This document shows, piece by piece, positions 1-18,646 of a DNA stretch of 35,276 nucleotides (positions within the stretch are counted from its first letter, which is position 1; the number at the start of each line of letters is the position of its first letter). The DNA is from a virus, in IMG/VR virus record IMGVR_UViG_3300047562_004460, positions 1-35,276 of that record. The stretch is one strand, 5' to 3'. The position numbers and the translations under genes were made by a program. The notes under the pieces were generated by a model. That model ran no database searches. It was not told the DNA's origin and was given only the letters and a program-made list of their open reading frames with translations.

Positions 1-320
1 CCTCTAGGCCTAGTGCGCATTGCTTGCAGCGGCAGGCCAATTGTCACAACGGGGGGTAGGGGGTTACACAACCTGGTAACAAATGTGACAGTGCTATGCT
101 AAACAGTCACGCTTTTTGTGTGTTTCTACATGTCTTTAAACGATGATTTTTGTAGTATGTGACAATTATACTCCATAGAGGCCGGTCTTGTCAATGGGCG
201 GGTAGCCACTTCGTGGCACCCAAAACCAGCTCGTGGATTGTCACAATATTGACACATTTAGATACATTTATTGACACAAAAAATACCCCCTTCACAAGCG
301 GCCGACCCCTTCACATGGCC

Positions 321-10252: not shown

Positions 10253-10533
10253 AAAGAGAGACGTTTTATTGCCTTTGTGGGCACTTAGAGCATCAACTGA
10301 TTGCCGATGTCATCGATGATGACGTAGATACCACGGTGGTATATCTAAGTATGAATCTTTCTAATGAATTTTCCTTCTTCAAAAGACTGAAGTTAGGAAT
10401 TAAATACATTTTCGGATATAGGTCAAAATTCGGAATGTTTTCTGAGGTTCTTCTAGATGAGATTGAAACAATAAAATTTATTAGATTTTTAAATCAAGCT
10501 CTACTCGACAAGAAGATGGATGTCCCTAACTAA
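10249..10533 (+). CDS. Conserved phage hypothetical protein (94 aa)
   Basis: It resembles a small protein family I recall from many phages, marked by the segment FKRLKLGIKYIFGYRSKFG followed by a short helix ending in an IRFLNQAL-like stretch. The N-terminus has a CLCGHLEHQ cysteine pair that may bind metal. The function is unknown. It is coupled to the genes on both sides by overlaps of 4 and 14 bases. Confidence 0.65.
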   Translation: MKRETFYCLCGHLEHQLIADVIDDDVDTTVVYLSMNLSNEFSFFKRLKLGIKYIFGYRSKFGMFSEVLLDEIETIKFIRFLNQALLDKKMDVPN

Positions 10534-11173
10534 TCTTATTACTACTCACCTTCCGGATCTTTCAGAAGAAGATACTTCATTACACGGAGTAGATCCTTGC
10601 ATAATCAAAGATTCCGCCGAAATTCGCTCGAGTGTTTTTTCTGGTGGGAAATTCAGAAGAGCCCGCGTTTGTAACCTATCAGTCCCTGATAAATTTACCG
10701 CAGAGACGTTAGTCATCTATCCGGACTTTGGATATGACTTTCCTATTTTTGGCACAGAGTATCTCAGGATAGGAAGTAAGAAGTATTTTGGAGCGACAGA
10801 TTTCCACCCTATATCCTCAAATATGGATTATGCCGAACTCTATTTAAAAGATTTTCCTGATAGTGAGGCTCTTGGATCTAAATTTTATGATCTATCTAAA
10901 TTCTTTTCCTCCAAGTTCTCTCTTAAAAAATCCGAAGAAGATTTTTATGAAGAATATCTTAAAGAGGTCTCAAAGTTCCTTGGGGCATACCATACCTGCT
11001 CGGAAGAAGCATTACCACCCCCCACGGACTCTGAATCTTCTCAGAGAGAATACGACGTCCATATGGCAGAAAACGATCCCGCCCGTGGTATCTTAAAGGC
11101 CTACTTTTCTCCCGATTTTGCCGAAACTTACATCCACAATTTTCTTTTCACCCTCGCCAACGGACAAAAATGA
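10520..11173 (+). CDS. Ferredoxin-dependent bilin reductase (PcyA/PebS/PcyX family, 217 aa)
   Basis: These enzymes reduce biliverdin to phycobilin chromophores using ferredoxin electrons. The family core is visible: a strand-rich centre with LVIYPDFGYDFPIFGTEYL (64-82), then KKYFGATDFHPI (87-98), where Asp94 aligns with the central catalytic Asp, and a C-terminal YDVHMAENDPARGILKAYF (178-196), where Asp186 falls where PebS has its second Asp. The end (AETYIHNFLFTL) also fits the family. At 217 aa it is slightly shorter than the roughly 233 of PebS. Two aspartates favour a PebS-type four-electron reaction giving phycoerythrobilin, but the subfamily cannot be fixed by eye. It overlaps both neighbours slightly. 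Confidence 0.82.
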   Translation: MSLTNLITTHLPDLSEEDTSLHGVDPCIIKDSAEIRSSVFSGGKFRRARVCNLSVPDKFTAETLVIYPDFGYDFPIFGTEYLRIGSKKYFGATDFHPISSNMDYAELYLKDFPDSEALGSKFYDLSKFFSSKFSLKKSEEDFYEEYLKEVSKFLGAYHTCSEEALPPPTDSESSQREYDVHMAENDPARGILKAYFSPDFAETYIHNFLFTLANGQK

Positions 11174-12341: not shown

Positions 12342-12671
12342 ATGGGAAAACATTTTTTGCTCAATCTCTACGGCGTGGATCCGCTTCTTCTTCGCGAGAT
12401 GGATTGTTTTGTTGAATATATTAATCCAGAGTTAAAGGATTGCATGGCGGAAATACTGGACGAGTGTAGTCATAAGTTCCCTGGTGGAGGAGGATATACT
12501 TATCTTGCCTTGTTATCAACGTCTCACTTTTCTATTCATACGTGGCCAGAGAATAGTTGTTGTGCTATTGATATGTTTTCCTGTGGAGAAATTATGTCCG
12601 AAGCGCTCATTGACAGAGTAACAAAATTTTTCGCCCCCTCCTCATACGATCTAAAAATGGTCAATAGATGA
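12342..12671 (+). CDS. speD: S-adenosylmethionine decarboxylase proenzyme
   Basis: SpeD makes decarboxylated SAM for spermidine synthesis. It self-cleaves before a serine to form the pyruvoyl cofactor. At 109 aa it has the size of the bacterial class 1B enzymes. Motifs: GKHFLLNLYGVDP at the N-terminus, SHFSIHTWPE at 61-70, with Ser61 as pyruvoyl precursor and His66 as processing histidine, and CGE with Cys81 as the catalytic cysteine. The residue before the cleavage serine is Thr60 where Glu is usual. The gene starts one base after the Dam-like gene and its stop overlaps a new -10 box. Confidence 0.93.
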   Translation: MGKHFLLNLYGVDPLLLREMDCFVEYINPELKDCMAEILDECSHKFPGGGGYTYLALLSTSHFSIHTWPENSCCAIDMFSCGEIMSEALIDRVTKFFAPSSYDLKMVNR

Positions 12672-14602: not shown

Positions 14603-15463
14603 ATGATAAAGAGCGCAATGAATATACCCTCAGGTTGGAGAAGCACCTCCTACTCCGATGAACTCGTACCAGAGGCTATAAGAAAGTCGGCGGTTCCAGG
14701 CCAAGTTTATCGTAATCCGCAGACCGGTAGTACACTTCGCAAAGAGGCTAATGGCCACTGGGTGAGCGTCGGTGGAAATGATAGAGTGGAGGAGCGAGGC
14801 CCTAAGCAACCCGAATCAATGCCAGACATCTCTAAGATGAAAAAATTGGCAGAGGGAAATTATGGCGTTGTGTATCAAGACCCCAAAACCGGCCATGTTG
14901 TAAAAACCTTAAAAGAAGGGAAGAAGTGGGGAGAACATGAGGTTGAGTTGGGACGTAAAATGGGAGAACTGGGACATTCTCCGAAGATCTATAGCGCCTC
15001 CGACTCACACATAGAAATGGATTTTTCTAAAGGCAAACCCCTATGGTCTGGTGGGTTTAATCGCACAGACGAGGAAAAAGAACGCGACTTAAAAATGTCT
15101 CCCGAGCAGGCCCAAAAAGCTTTAGCCGCAATCAAAGACCTTCATAAGATGGGCTTTTATCACGGTGACATGCATAATGAGCAATTTCTAACTGACGGAG
15201 AAGGGGGTAAGGAAGCAATTCTTATTGACTATGGTCTTTCTGGCAAGATTAAAGACCAACCCCATAAGGCTATTGTCGACTTCAATAAGGTAGGAAAACT
15301 TATTGATATTTATCGCCCAGAACTGGATAATGATCCATATGTCCAACTCGTGAGAGAATCCGTAGATGCCTATAAAGCCACTAAAGGCCAGTCTAAGGCC
15401 GCTGTAGCTAAACGTTCTCAAATTGGTTTAGAGTACTTAGATCGAGTCGAAAATCTCGATTGA
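14603..15463 (+). CDS. Protein-kinase-fold protein (286 aa)
   Basis: Residues about 80-215 show the protein kinase core: glycine loop GNYGVVY (85-91), VVKTL with Lys101 as the ATP lysine, a Glu near 111-113 for the salt bridge, IKDLHKMGFYHGDMHNEQ (177-194) as the catalytic loop with Asp189, and LIDYG (207-211) as the DFG equivalent with Asp209. The compact layout recalls RIO/Bud32-type and aminoglycoside-phosphotransferase-like kinases. The metal-binding Asn expected at the end of HGDxHxxN is Gln194 here, which may weaken activity. The N-terminal 75 residues are a separate segment with a VYRNPQTGSTLRKEANGHW motif. It may phosphorylate host or virion proteins; the substrate is unknown. Confidence 0.7.
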   Translation: MIKSAMNIPSGWRSTSYSDELVPEAIRKSAVPGQVYRNPQTGSTLRKEANGHWVSVGGNDRVEERGPKQPESMPDISKMKKLAEGNYGVVYQDPKTGHVVKTLKEGKKWGEHEVELGRKMGELGHSPKIYSASDSHIEMDFSKGKPLWSGGFNRTDEEKERDLKMSPEQAQKALAAIKDLHKMGFYHGDMHNEQFLTDGEGGKEAILIDYGLSGKIKDQPHKAIVDFNKVGKLIDIYRPELDNDPYVQLVRESVDAYKATKGQSKAAVAKRSQIGLEYLDRVENLD

Positions 15464-15488
15464 CAAACTAGGTAACATTTGATATAAT
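15460..15488 (+). promoter_or_regulatory. Consensus sigma-70-type promoter (tRNA-Gly/porin)
   Basis: TTGACA at 15460-15465, a 17-base spacer and TATAAT at 15483-15488, with TG just before the -10. This is a perfect match to the vegetative consensus and the strongest promoter in the window. It overlaps the stop codon of the kinase-like gene and reads into tRNA-Gly and then the porin. Confidence 0.9.
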
Positions 15489-15545
15489 ATCACTATCAAT
15501 ACTCCTCAAGCATAACCACTTCGGAGCTCAAACAGAGGAGTCACT

Positions 15546-15616
15546 GCGGGCATGGTGTAGCGGTAACATCTGAGCCTTCCAAGCTTCAGTCACCGGTTCG
15601 ATCCCGGTTGCCCGCT
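15546..15616 (+). tRNA. tRNA-Gly (anticodon TCC)
   Basis: Acceptor GCGGGCA pairs with TGCCCGC. The anticodon loop is CTTCCAA, and the T arm is ACCGG-TTCGATC-CCGGT. CCA is not encoded. It is the first product of the consensus promoter and is separated from the other ten tRNAs by the porin and hli genes. Confidence 0.93.
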
Positions 15617-15617
15617 T

Positions 15618-15678
15618 AGGGGATAACAGTGTAGTCGTTGAGCAGATAGCTCAGAAAGACGCATAACCCCTTTCTTTC
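15618..15678 (+). other. Nested hairpin between tRNA-Gly and porin
   Basis: AGGGG (15618-15622) can close with CCCCT (15667-15671) around an inner GAGC-AGATA-GCTC hairpin, followed by TTCTTTC. It may be an attenuator or processing signal that uncouples tRNA from porin expression. The same architecture recurs in other tRNA spacers. Confidence 0.45.
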
Positions 15679-15698: not shown

Positions 15699-17177
15699 AT
15701 GAAACTTTTCAAATACTTGATGGTTGCTCCAGTTGCCTTTGGAGTTGCGACCCCTATGGCAAATGCTGCTGACCTCAAGCTTGATGAGGTTAGTAAGTAC
15801 TCTGCGTCAGAACAAGTTACAAGCATTTCCCAGTTTTCAGACGTTCGTCCTACCGACTGGGCTTATCAGGCGCTTAGCAATCTTGTAGAGCGTTATGGTT
15901 GCGTAGCAGGTTATCCTAATGGCACCTATAAGGGTGGCCAGGCAATGACTCGCTATGAGGCTGCTGCTCTGCTCAATGCTTGCCTCGACCGTATTACTGA
16001 AGTGACCGATGAAATTCGTAAACTTCAGGAAGAGTTCAAGGCAGAACTGATTGTTCTCCGCGGCCGTGTTGATGGCTTGGAAGCAAAGGTTGGTGTGCTT
16101 GAGTCGCAACAATTCTCTACTACTACCAAACTCAAGGGTGAAGCTACCTTTGTTCTTGGTGGAGTTCCTGGTCTTGATACGAATGACGGTGGAAACGTTG
16201 GCAACACCGCATTTAATTACGATCTCCGTCTGAACTTTGATACTTCGTTTACGGGTAAGGATCTGCTTCGTACTCGTCTGCGTTCTGGGAACTTTAGTAC
16301 CGATCCGTTCGGCTCTAGTTCTTCTCTGTTCAAACTGGACAAAGCAGAAACCACTGACAATCAGGTAGAAATTGATCGTCTCTACTATCAATTCCCTGTA
16401 AGCGTCGGTGGCGCGGATCTGACTTTCACCGCCGGTCCTCTTGTCCGCAACACTGAGATGGCATGGGTTCCTACTGCTTATAAGTCGGAAATCCTTGACT
16501 TCTTTGCCGTTGCAGGTACCCCTGGTGTCTATAACAAGGCAACTGGTGCTGGTATCGGTGTTCAGTATGGTGGTAGCAAGGGATTCGTTGCTGGTCTGAA
16601 TTATGTTGCCCAAGAAGGCGATGATAGTTCCACTGGTGTATTTGATTCCGATGGCGCTCTGAACTTTATGGCCCAACTTGGTTATCGTGATACCAACTGG
16701 GGTATTGGTGTGGGTTATCGTTATGGTTCTGAGGGCACCCGTCCTCGTACCTACAATGGTCTCCTGGGTGCCAATGGTGCTCTGGTTGATGGTCAGGAGT
16801 CGAATGCCATTGCAGTTAATGCTTATTGGCAACCTTCTGAATCTGGTTGGGTTCCCTCCATCTCTGCTGGTTATGGATATAACTGGGTGAGTGGTTCCAC
16901 TGGTGCTACTGATGCTACTGATAGTCAGTCTTGGATGGCAGCACTTCAGTGGAGCGATGTGTTTGCTAAGGGCAACTCTGCTGGTGTTGCTGTTGGTCAA
17001 GCACCCACTGCTGACACTGCTGGTGTAGATGATGCTACGCTGCTTGAGATCTTCTACAAGTTCCAAGTATCTGACAACATCAGCATCACTCCTGCTCTGT
17101 TCTACGTTGACAACAATCAGCGTTATCAGGACAGCAGCAAGTGGGGTGGCGTGATCCAAACCAAATTTACGTTCTGA
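15699..17177 (+). CDS. Cyanobacterial outer-membrane porin with SLH domain (SomA/OprB type, 492 aa)
   Basis: Such porins form the main diffusion channels of the cyanobacterial outer membrane and bind the cell wall through an SLH domain. A signal peptide ends at about residue 23 (MANAA). Residues 46-98 are an SLH domain (FSDVRPTDWAYQAL, CVAGYPNGTYKGGQAMTRYEAA), 100-136 a short coiled coil, and 140-492 a beta-barrel with alternating residues and a C-terminal Phe, the outer-membrane assembly signal. The length fits host porins of about 500 aa. Codon use is smoother and richer in host-like triplets than in the small genes nearby, pointing to capture from a host. Transcription is likely from the consensus promoter at 15460. 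Possible roles are nutrient uptake during infection or masking of the phage receptor. Confidence 0.95.
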   Translation: MKLFKYLMVAPVAFGVATPMANAADLKLDEVSKYSASEQVTSISQFSDVRPTDWAYQALSNLVERYGCVAGYPNGTYKGGQAMTRYEAAALLNACLDRITEVTDEIRKLQEEFKAELIVLRGRVDGLEAKVGVLESQQFSTTTKLKGEATFVLGGVPGLDTNDGGNVGNTAFNYDLRLNFDTSFTGKDLLRTRLRSGNFSTDPFGSSSSLFKLDKAETTDNQVEIDRLYYQFPVSVGGADLTFTAGPLVRNTEMAWVPTAYKSEILDFFAVAGTPGVYNKATGAGIGVQYGGSKGFVAGLNYVAQEGDDSSTGVFDSDGALNFMAQLGYRDTNWGIGVGYRYGSEGTRPRTYNGLLGANGALVDGQESNAIAVNAYWQPSESGWVPSISAGYGYNWVSGSTGATDATDSQSWMAALQWSDVFAKGNSAGVAVGQAPTADTAGVDDATLLEIFYKFQVSDNISITPALFYVDNNQRYQDSSKWGGVIQTKFTF

Positions 17178-17203: not shown

Positions 17204-17226
17204 GGGGCTCTTGACGGGGCCCCTAT
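17204..17226 (+). terminator. Porin terminator
   Basis: GGGGCTC (17204-17210) pairs with GGGCCCC (17217-17223, one G-T pair) over a six-base loop, followed by TATTTCT. The T-run is imperfect, so some read-through into hli is possible. Confidence 0.65.
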
Positions 17227-17231
17227 TTCTA

Positions 17232-17240
17232 TGATATAAT
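17232..17240 (+). promoter_or_regulatory. Extended -10 promoter of hli
   Basis: TGATATAAT lies 24 bases before the hli ATG and directly after the porin terminator. Confidence 0.65.
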
Positions 17241-17264: not shown

Positions 17265-17483
17265 ATGACTGTAACTACTAATGAACATGGGCAAATGAAC
17301 ATGTTCGCCAAAGAACCCCAAATGTATATCGATCCTACCATCCAAGAACAAATGGAAAAAAACGTGTATCAGACTCATAACGAACGTGCTGAAATGCTCA
17401 ATGGTCGTCTTGCGATGATTGGGGTAATGGCAGCGCTTCTCAACTACGCCTCCACTGGTCAAATCATCCCGGGTGTGTGGTAA
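17265..17483 (+). CDS. hli: High-light-inducible protein (single-helix chlorophyll-binding)
   Basis: Hlips bind chlorophyll and carotenoid near photosystem II and dissipate excess light; cyanophages often carry them with psbA. The chlorophyll-binding helix is ERAEMLNGRLAMIGVMAALL (residues 40-59), with the diagnostic ExxNGR. The C-terminus TGQIIPGVW is also typical. At 72 aa it is slightly longer than many phage forms because of a polar N-terminal extension of about 38 residues. It has its own extended -10 promoter between the porin terminator and the candidate small RNA. Confidence 0.97.
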   Translation: MTVTTNEHGQMNMFAKEPQMYIDPTIQEQMEKNVYQTHNERAEMLNGRLAMIGVMAALLNYASTGQIIPGVW

Positions 17484-17835: not shown

Positions 17836-17918
17836 GGAGAGGGTCCGGTTGGTCGAGGACGCAGTCTTGAAAACTGTTGGGTGTAAAAACCTCGGGGGTT
17901 CGATTCCCTTCTTCTCCG
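17836..17918 (+). tRNA. tRNA-Ser (anticodon TGA)
   Basis: A class II tRNA with a long variable arm. Acceptor GGAGAGG pairs with CTTCTCC, the anticodon loop is CTTGAAA and the discriminator is G. The T arm contains GGGTTCGATTCCC. Confidence 0.93.
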
Positions 17919-18366: not shown

Positions 18367-18572
18367 TTAGAGGCCGACGGGTCTCTAAAGAGCATGGCAG
18401 AATAATCCTTATGGTTATCCACGGGATAATGCTGTGAGTTAGGGGTGGTGCCCGCTGAGTCGCTAGGAAACTAGAGGCCCAGAACCCTTTACCAAAGGGA
18501 ACTCATGATCGAGAGATACAGTTGTCAGTGTGACCCTCTCGTTGTTGGTATGACAGAATCCAACTGCTCAAT
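18367..18572 (+). other. Structured 206-base spacer in the tRNA cluster
   Basis: I see no gene or tRNA here. It contains several hairpins: AGAGGCC...GGGTCTCT (18369-18386), CTAG-GAAA-CTAG (18463-18474, with a GNRA loop) and CCCTTT-ACC-AAAGGG (18485-18499). It may be a small RNA, a processing spacer or decayed tRNA sequence. Confidence 0.45.
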
Positions 18573-18646
18573 GCCTCCTTAGCTCAGCTGGATAGAGCAA
18601 CGGTTTTGTAAACCGTAGGTCGCCGGTTCAAGTCCGGCAGGGGGCT
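18573..18646 (+). tRNA. tRNA-Thr (anticodon TGT)
   Basis: Acceptor GCCTCCT pairs with AGGGGGC. The anticodon arm is ACGGT-TTTGTAA-ACCGT and the T arm is GCCGG-TTCAAGT-CCGGC. It is directly followed by tRNA-Asn. Confidence 0.95.

What the first reader, a model, noticed from the sequence alone, without database searches (positions are those of the whole stretch)
15699..17177. Phage-borne outer-membrane porin with SLH domain behind a perfect promoter
A complete host-type porin with signal peptide, SLH anchor and terminal Phe is unusual cargo for a phage. It is driven by the only perfect TTGACA-N17-TATAAT promoter of the window, so it may be made early and in large amounts. Replacing host porins could change phosphate or nutrient uptake, or hide a porin receptor from competing phages.
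Basis: partly seen in the sequence, partly recalled or inferred. Interest (0 to 1): 0.75.

Follow-up and report, generated by a model that had tools for sequence, protein, structure and literature searches.

The report
Cyanophage outer-membrane tether porin operon
This virus of photosynthetic bacteria carries its own long-established copy of the protein that pins the host's outer membrane to its cell wall, in a genome slot where related viruses carry a smaller membrane protein on the same kind of anchor, and the transcript that should make it starts with an RNA resembling the antidote of a bacterial anti-virus toxin.

Summary
ORF 15699-17177 encodes a complete 492-aa SLH + OprB porin (signal peptide, coiled coil, 16 predicted strands, terminal Phe). 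The perfect promoter (15460-15488) is real, but it lies upstream of an abiF-like RNA and tRNA-Gly(TCC), so it drives RNA, then tRNA, then porin.

The porin is neither an assembly chimera nor a recent pick-up. At least 134 IMG/VR contigs and isolate S-SRM01 carry relatives. All 40 phage copies sampled form one clade beside Cyanobium-type host porins, under purifying selection.

New here: the same slot holds one of two SLH-anchored outer-membrane proteins. One is this 16-strand porin. The other is an 8-strand protein (S-PM2 "S-layer protein") found only in phages. Long records carry exactly one (14/14). The closest phage found (DNA polymerase 82% identical) has the 8-strand type between the same tRNA-Gly and hli. 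The shared part is the anchor, not the pore, so I favour an outer-membrane tether and surface-remodelling role over nutrient uptake.

The hairpin between promoter and tRNA is an orphan abiF-type antitoxin RNA. It recurs in about 30 phage loci, nearly always abutting a tRNA. The phages lack the Abi_2 toxin; some host relatives have it with the same RNA. Likely counter-defence.

The parts
14603..15463 (+). Upstream ORF, weakly kinase-like; conserved in S-TIM5; its stop codon overlaps the promoter -35 box
   Evidence: 62% identical to an S-TIM5 ORF; weak ABC1/Pkinase hits below cut-off
15460..15488 (+). Perfect sigma-70-type promoter TTGACA-N17-TATAAT (with TG before -10)
   Evidence: similar promoters (TTGAC, 17-19 bases, TATAAT) upstream of 24/115 distinct phage SLH-OMP genes against 27/847 other ORFs
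15499..15545 (+). abiF-like RNA hairpin (orphan, no Abi_2 toxin gene found), abutting the tRNA
   Evidence: CM built without the window finds it at 43.5 bits, E=2.6e-10; Rfam RF03085 only 23.5 bits, gathering 37; covariation in the family
15546..15616 (+). tRNA-Gly(TCC)
   Evidence: same tRNA just upstream of the SLH-OMP gene in 54/115 distinct phage loci, 1/847 other ORFs, 0/34 host porins
15631..15662 (+). Small recurring motif GTAGTCGTT-hairpin-AGAAAGACGC between tRNA and porin
   Evidence: also in L207, L049, L133, L153 and a variant in L170; hairpin letters co-vary
15699..17177 (+). Phage SLH-OprB porin / outer-membrane tether, 492 aa
15699..15767 (+). Signal peptide (residues 1-23)
   Evidence: sequence, by inspection
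15834..15965 (+). SLH domain (residues 46-89)
   Evidence: PF00395, 35.5 bits; most conserved region, pN/pS 0.18
15951..16106 (+). Coiled-coil stalk (residues 85-136)
   Evidence: one long helix in the model; PDB profile hit to OmpM1
16119..17171 (+). 16-strand OprB-type beta barrel with L3 constriction loop (residues 251-281)
   Evidence: model with 16 strands; Foldseek to OprB 4gey and OmpM1 8bys
17204..17223 (+). Terminator-like hairpin closing the transcription unit
17211..17240 (+). Separate promoter of hli, overlapping the terminator
   Evidence: TTGACG-N18-TATAAT, 11 of 12
17265..17483 (+). High-light inducible protein (hli), right border of the slot
   Evidence: phrog_178, 2.1e-29

Best explanation
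The gene is a phage-resident member of the cyanobacterial SLH-OprB (OmpM-type) outer-membrane porins. It is transcribed as part of a unit from the strong promoter at 15460: abiF-like RNA, then tRNA-Gly(TCC), then porin, then terminator. Inferred mechanism: host messages fall away during infection. The phage then supplies its own protein, exported by Sec and Bam, whose barrel sits in the outer membrane and whose SLH head binds the cell wall. This keeps the outer membrane pinned to the wall for the long latent period and renews the cell surface with phage-specified loops. In this 16-strand version a host-like small-ion channel is also kept. Shown here: the protein architecture, phage residence, purifying selection and the slot with two alternative barrels. 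Inferred: export, tethering in the infected cell, timing and benefit.
For: Domain and profile scores. 16-strand model, closest to OprB and to the tether-porin OmpM1 (54 by sequence). OmpM is the demonstrated outer-membrane tether with a porin barrel (PMC10628300). Loss of an abundant cyanobacterial SLH/OprB protein causes hypervesiculation and low iron (PMC8707739). One phage clade. pN/pS is 0.36 overall, 0.18 in SLH, 0.20 in L3 and 0.5-0.85 in most outer loops. An alternative 8-strand OMP shares only SLH + coil. It is absent from 299 host genomes. The two types never occur together in 14 long phage records. The closest phage found, with DNA polymerase 82% identical, carries the 8-strand type between a 96%-identical tRNA-Gly and hli. 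The feature common to both is the anchor.
Against: L3 is as conserved as SLH in the porin type, so permeation matters at least there. The 8-strand form may do something else entirely, and common position is not common function. No expression or localisation data exist for this phage; the S-PM2 statement comes from a review. In S-TIM5 a phosphate-transporter gene (pstS) lies just upstream of hli, which hints at nutrient cargo. Models have mean pLDDT of only 66-68, low in the SLH region.
Confidence: 0.55

Rival explanations
1. Superinfection exclusion: the phage protein replaces or crowds host porins and other surface receptors, so that later phages cannot adsorb; the barrel type is irrelevant as long as the surface changes.
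For: Outer loops L1, L4-L8 are the least conserved parts and differ most from host porins (phage to near host 11-43% identity, against 83% in SLH). Whole-gene exchange in one slot between related phages fits selection for surface change. A protective role was already suggested for the S-PM2 protein (PMC2984593).
Against: Variable outer loops are normal for any outer-membrane protein. No pN/pS above 1 in any region. No porin is shown here to be a receptor for these phages.
Confidence: 0.25
2. Auxiliary nutrient uptake: the porin raises inorganic ion (iron, phosphate) flux into the infected cell.
For: NF033921 'iron uptake porin' family. Slr1908 loss lowers cell iron (PMC8707739). L3 constriction conserved and host-like. 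S-TIM5 has pstS just upstream of hli. S-SRM01 has a Dps gene three genes downstream of the porin.
Against: The slot more often holds an 8-strand barrel (361 contigs against 134), which should have no wide pore. Outer-membrane porin flux is seldom limiting for small ions (general knowledge).
Confidence: 0.17
3. Neutral host cargo or an assembly chimera.
For: The gene is host-like in sequence (about 60% to Cyanobium).
Against: 134 independent contigs, an isolate genome, one phage clade, purifying selection, conserved slot.
Confidence: 0.02

Closest known systems
S-SRM01 'porin' (QPX48248.1, MW015081)
   Same: Same 16-strand SLH-OprB protein, 69.6% identical over full length, behind tRNA-Thr and tRNA-Gly(TCC) and a TTGACA-N17-TATAAT promoter
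   Different: S-SRM01 belongs to Kyanoviridae, and its record holds a family-B DNA polymerase and no family-A one. The window's polymerase is the S-TIM5 type (72.5%). The S-SRM01 paper does not mention the gene.
S-PM2 'putative S-layer protein' and S-CREM1 'iron uptake porin'
   Same: Signal peptide + SLH + coil + outer-membrane barrel with terminal Phe; S-PM2 slot just after tRNA-Gly(TCC), hli close downstream
   Different: 8-strand barrel unrelated by sequence to OprB; the names in the records are misleading
Cyanobacterial SLH-OprB porins (SomA/SomB, Slr1841, Slr1908)
   Same: Same architecture and family; best host match about 60-66%
   Different: Host copies have no tRNA-Gly upstream (0/34) and outer loops differ
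Veillonella OmpM1 (8bym, 8bys)
   Same: SLH head, stalk and 16-strand porin; proven outer-membrane tether (PMC10628300)
   Different: Cellular, 15-16% identical barrel; binds polyaminated wall rather than pyruvylated polymer
Lambdoid phage PA-2 Lc porin (from memory, not checked)
   Same: Phage-encoded porin reported to change the host surface and exclude phage
   Different: OmpC-type, lysogenic, no SLH
abiF RNA (Rfam RF03085) and AbiF system of C. difficile (PMC12373285)
   Same: Hairpin core AAGC...GCTCAAA with covarying outer stem; that antitoxin RNA works in trans
   Different: Orphan: no Abi_2 gene in 24 phage records; nearly always abuts a tRNA; the window copy is below Rfam's own cut-off

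Membership tests
Cyanobacterial SLH-OprB porin (NF033921 / OmpM type) | N-terminal SLH domain over curated cut-off | tested here: met
   35.5 bits, cut-off 20.8
Cyanobacterial SLH-OprB porin (NF033921 / OmpM type) | OprB barrel over curated cut-off | tested here: met
   84.3 bits, cut-off 22.9
Cyanobacterial SLH-OprB porin (NF033921 / OmpM type) | NCBIfam NF033921 over cut-off, full length | tested here: met
   322.9 bits, cut-off 100, profile 1-485/485
Cyanobacterial SLH-OprB porin (NF033921 / OmpM type) | 16-strand barrel, L3 loop, terminal aromatic residue | tested here: met
   prediction only, mean pLDDT 68; terminal F
Cyanobacterial SLH-OprB porin (NF033921 / OmpM type) | Sec signal peptide | tested here: met
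   by inspection only; no predictor available
Cyanobacterial SLH-OprB porin (NF033921 / OmpM type) | Binds cell-wall polymer and tethers the outer membrane | not testable with these tools
   needs binding assay or microscopy
Cyanobacterial SLH-OprB porin (NF033921 / OmpM type) | Forms an ion channel | not testable with these tools
   L3 conserved and host-like but no flux data
8-strand phage SLH-OMP (S-PM2 type) | Small 8-strand barrel after SLH and coil | tested here: not met
   16 strands; only SLH and coil align
Phage superinfection-exclusion porin (PA-2 Lc) | Blocks adsorption of other phages | not testable with these tools
   needs superinfection assay
abiF RNA RF03085 (for 15499-15545) | Score over Rfam gathering cut-off | tested here: not met
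   23.5 bits, gathering 37; other phage copies, S-SRM01 and S-SZBM1 included, score 46.8-58.7
abiF RNA RF03085 (for 15499-15545) | Same covarying hairpin as relatives that do pass | tested here: met
   model built without the window: 43.5 bits, E=2.6e-10; covariation 0/500 shuffles
abiF RNA RF03085 (for 15499-15545) | Upstream of an Abi_2 toxin gene | tested here: not met
   no Abi_2 in 24 phage records; host Abi_2 loci do have it

The most novel reading that the evidence does not exclude
The perfect promoter drives a host-takeover transcript with two arms. The first is an orphan antitoxin RNA of the AbiF type, freed at its 3' end by RNase P cutting at the abutting tRNA, which neutralises the host's AbiF abortive-infection RNase in trans. 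The second is an exchangeable SLH-anchored outer-membrane protein (16- or 8-strand barrel), swapped between unrelated cyanophage lineages in the tRNA-Gly to hli slot, which keeps the envelope pinned and changes the surface.
Probability: 0.45. Interest if true: 0.8.

Novelty: new variant of a known kind. Interest (0 to 1): 0.62.

Why it matters
If right, cyanophages commonly take over the host's outer-membrane anchoring during infection, a step not listed among their auxiliary functions in the papers found. The swap between a pore and a pore-less barrel in one slot offers a natural experiment that separates tethering and surface change from nutrient uptake. The orphan abiF-like RNA in cultured phages (S-SRM01, S-SZBM1) would be an RNA antitoxin mimic that can be tested directly against host AbiF.

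Tried and rejected
Recent host transfer or chimera: rejected.

Domain shuffling of one SLH chassis between barrels: the SLH + coil tree puts all 45 small forms in one clade (100*) apart from porin + host. So whole genes were exchanged; there was no barrel swap on one chassis.

tRNA-Gly there to help translate the porin: rejected. The porin uses GGT/GGC for 49 of 55 glycines, not GGA/GGG.

Host origin of the 8-strand barrel: no match in 299 genomes of the host order.

Phage-specific pore: L3 is host-like, and only two fixed phage-specific residues were found.

Known paper on a cyanophage porin: none found. The T4-GC 425 'S-layer domain protein' of other cyanophages (PMC3037559) was not reached by sequence.

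Two of my first motif regexes were faulty (last part) and are not used.

Full report
OBSERVATION. The window is a virus record of 35,276 bases. It carries psbA, hli, ten tRNAs, topoisomerase II and a family-A DNA polymerase. The polymerase is 72.5% identical to cyanophage S-TIM5. ORF 15699-17177 (+) is intact, 492 aa, and passes curated cut-offs for SLH, OprB and NF033921. The promoter TTGACA-N17-TATAAT at 15460-15488 is perfect and the only N17 case. A second perfect pair with an 18-base spacer lies at 165-194 on the minus strand, and chance expectation is 0.03. Between promoter and ATG lie an RNA hairpin (15499-15545) and tRNA-Gly(TCC) (15546-15616). After the porin comes a terminator-like hairpin (17204-17223) that overlaps a second strong promoter for hli. 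The unit is therefore promoter, RNA, tRNA-Gly, porin, terminator.

PROTEIN. The AlphaFold model from 39 phage sequences (mean pLDDT 68, low in the SLH region) shows one long stalk helix and 16 strands. Its nearest solved structures are OprB and the Veillonella tether-porin OmpM1, and a profile search finds OmpM1 and SlpA through SLH and stalk. OmpM is an experimentally shown outer-membrane tether plus channel, and cyanobacterial SLH heads bind pyruvylated wall polymer (PMC10628300). In Synechocystis, disruption of slr1908 gives hypervesiculation and low iron, and slr1841 is essential (PMC8707739).

DISTRIBUTION AND HISTORY. 134 IMG/VR stretches encode relatives, and isolate S-SRM01 has one at 69.6%. 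In a tree with 33 host porins the 40 phage copies form one clade (SH-aLRT 99, quick method), beside Cyanobium-type host copies. Pooled pN/pS among phage copies is 0.36. SLH (0.18) and the constriction loop L3 (0.20) are most constrained; outer loops L1, L6 and L7 least (0.64-0.85). L3 is host-like, while L1, L7 and L8 share only 11-25% identity with near host porins. The gene has therefore long lived in phages and is kept as a functional tether-porin.

TWO BARRELS, ONE SLOT. S-PM2 and S-CREM1 carry 279-292 aa proteins named 'S-layer protein' and 'iron uptake porin'. Their SLH and coil match the porin, but the rest does not (hhalign; Pfam). The model of that rest is an 8-strand barrel with terminal Phe, most like OmpA, OmpX and Ail. 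361 IMG/VR stretches encode relatives. The 8-strand part has no match in 299 genomes of the host order; SLH and coil do match host porins. Fourteen long phage records each hold exactly one SLH-OMP, eight the 16-strand type and six the 8-strand type.

tRNA-Gly(TCC) lies within 400 nt upstream of 54 of 115 distinct phage SLH-OMP genes (21/59 porin, 33/56 small). It lies there for 1 of 847 other ORFs of the same loci and 0 of 34 host porins; relatedness makes the P value only indicative. The best case is G128 (L193/L207), whose DNA polymerase is 82% identical to the window's. It is collinear over psbA to polymerase and carries the 8-strand protein between a 95.9%-identical tRNA-Gly and hli. S-TIM5 itself has pstS just upstream of hli. 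Most other carriers have a family-B, T4-like polymerase (21 of 28 records, against 1 with family A), so the genes move between unrelated phage lineages. SLH + coil sequences of the two types fall in separate clades, so whole genes were exchanged.

MECHANISM. What the two alternatives share is export, the wall-binding head and the stalk, not a wide pore. I therefore favour outer-membrane tethering and surface remodelling during infection (about 0.55), over superinfection exclusion alone (0.25) and nutrient uptake (0.17). Expression is inferred. The S-PM2 gene of the slot is stated to be among the earliest and most abundant transcripts (PMC2984593), and the porin's glycine codons are 49 of 55 GGT/GGC, unlike the polymerase.

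THE RNA BEHIND THE PROMOTER. Rfam gives abiF RNA at 15502-15541 with 23.5 bits, below the gathering score. The same hairpin in other cyanophage loci passes (46.8-58.7 bits). A covariance model built without the window finds the window copy at 43.5 bits, E=2.6e-10. The outer stem co-varies (26 cells changed on both sides, 0/500 shuffles as high). Thirty phage loci carry it, and in 28 a tRNA (Gly-TCC, Arg-TCT or Met) starts within about 4 nt of its 3' end. In L025 and L028 it stands directly before the porin without a tRNA. No Abi_2 gene was found in 24 phage records. Twelve of 299 genomes of the host order have Abi_2, and seven of those loci carry the same RNA just upstream of the toxin gene. 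The C. difficile AbiF RNA neutralises its toxin in trans (PMC12373285). An orphan antitoxin RNA released by tRNA processing is the natural reading; it is inferred, not shown. Host-infecting isolates S-SRM01 and S-SZBM1 carry it, as do mycobacteriophages such as Thibault.

LIMITS. IMG/VR records are fragments; host genomes were sampled; the trees are quick ones; structures are predictions; several expected papers are not in the open library.

Noticed in passing
15499-15545 (+); also L129:2911, L035:5742, L138:1353, L189:3356, L132:3058, L164:8452, L170:5800, L013:12, L001:14162, L207:5148: Orphan abiF-like RNA abutting a tRNA, in about 30 cyanophage loci without Abi_2 toxin; host Abi_2 loci L215-L221 carry the same RNA upstream of the toxin gene. 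Candidate RNA antitoxin mimic (counter-defence).
   Followed up: partly
L266:1203-1239 (Mycobacterium phage Thibault and about 35 related mycobacteriophages): abiF RNA above Rfam gathering (54.9 bits), no Abi_2 annotated nearby, about 270 nt before a tRNA-Gly(TCC)
   Followed up: no
15631-15662 (+); L207:5468, L049:209, L133:5375, L153:896, L170: Short recurring motif GTAGTCGTT-hairpin-AGAAAGACGC near tRNAs with covarying hairpin letters; no Rfam family
   Followed up: partly
18367-18574 (+): manA RNA (RF01745, 110 bits) embedded exactly between tRNA-Ile and tRNA-Thr in the tRNA cluster; also in L129, L132, L144
   Followed up: no
17836-17918 (+): Borderline tRNA-like match (29.3 bits, gathering 29) not called by ARAGORN; possibly a decayed tRNA
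   Followed up: no
L083 (CALGUV010000018.1): A Microbacteriaceae MAG contig carries a phage-clade porin: probably a cyanophage contig binned wrongly
   Followed up: partly
10520-11173 and 12342-12671 (+): Ferredoxin-dependent bilin reductase and S-adenosylmethionine decarboxylase genes: further host-like metabolic genes of the phage
   Followed up: no
165-194 (-): Second perfect pair of sigma-70 hexamers, 18-base spacer
   Followed up: no
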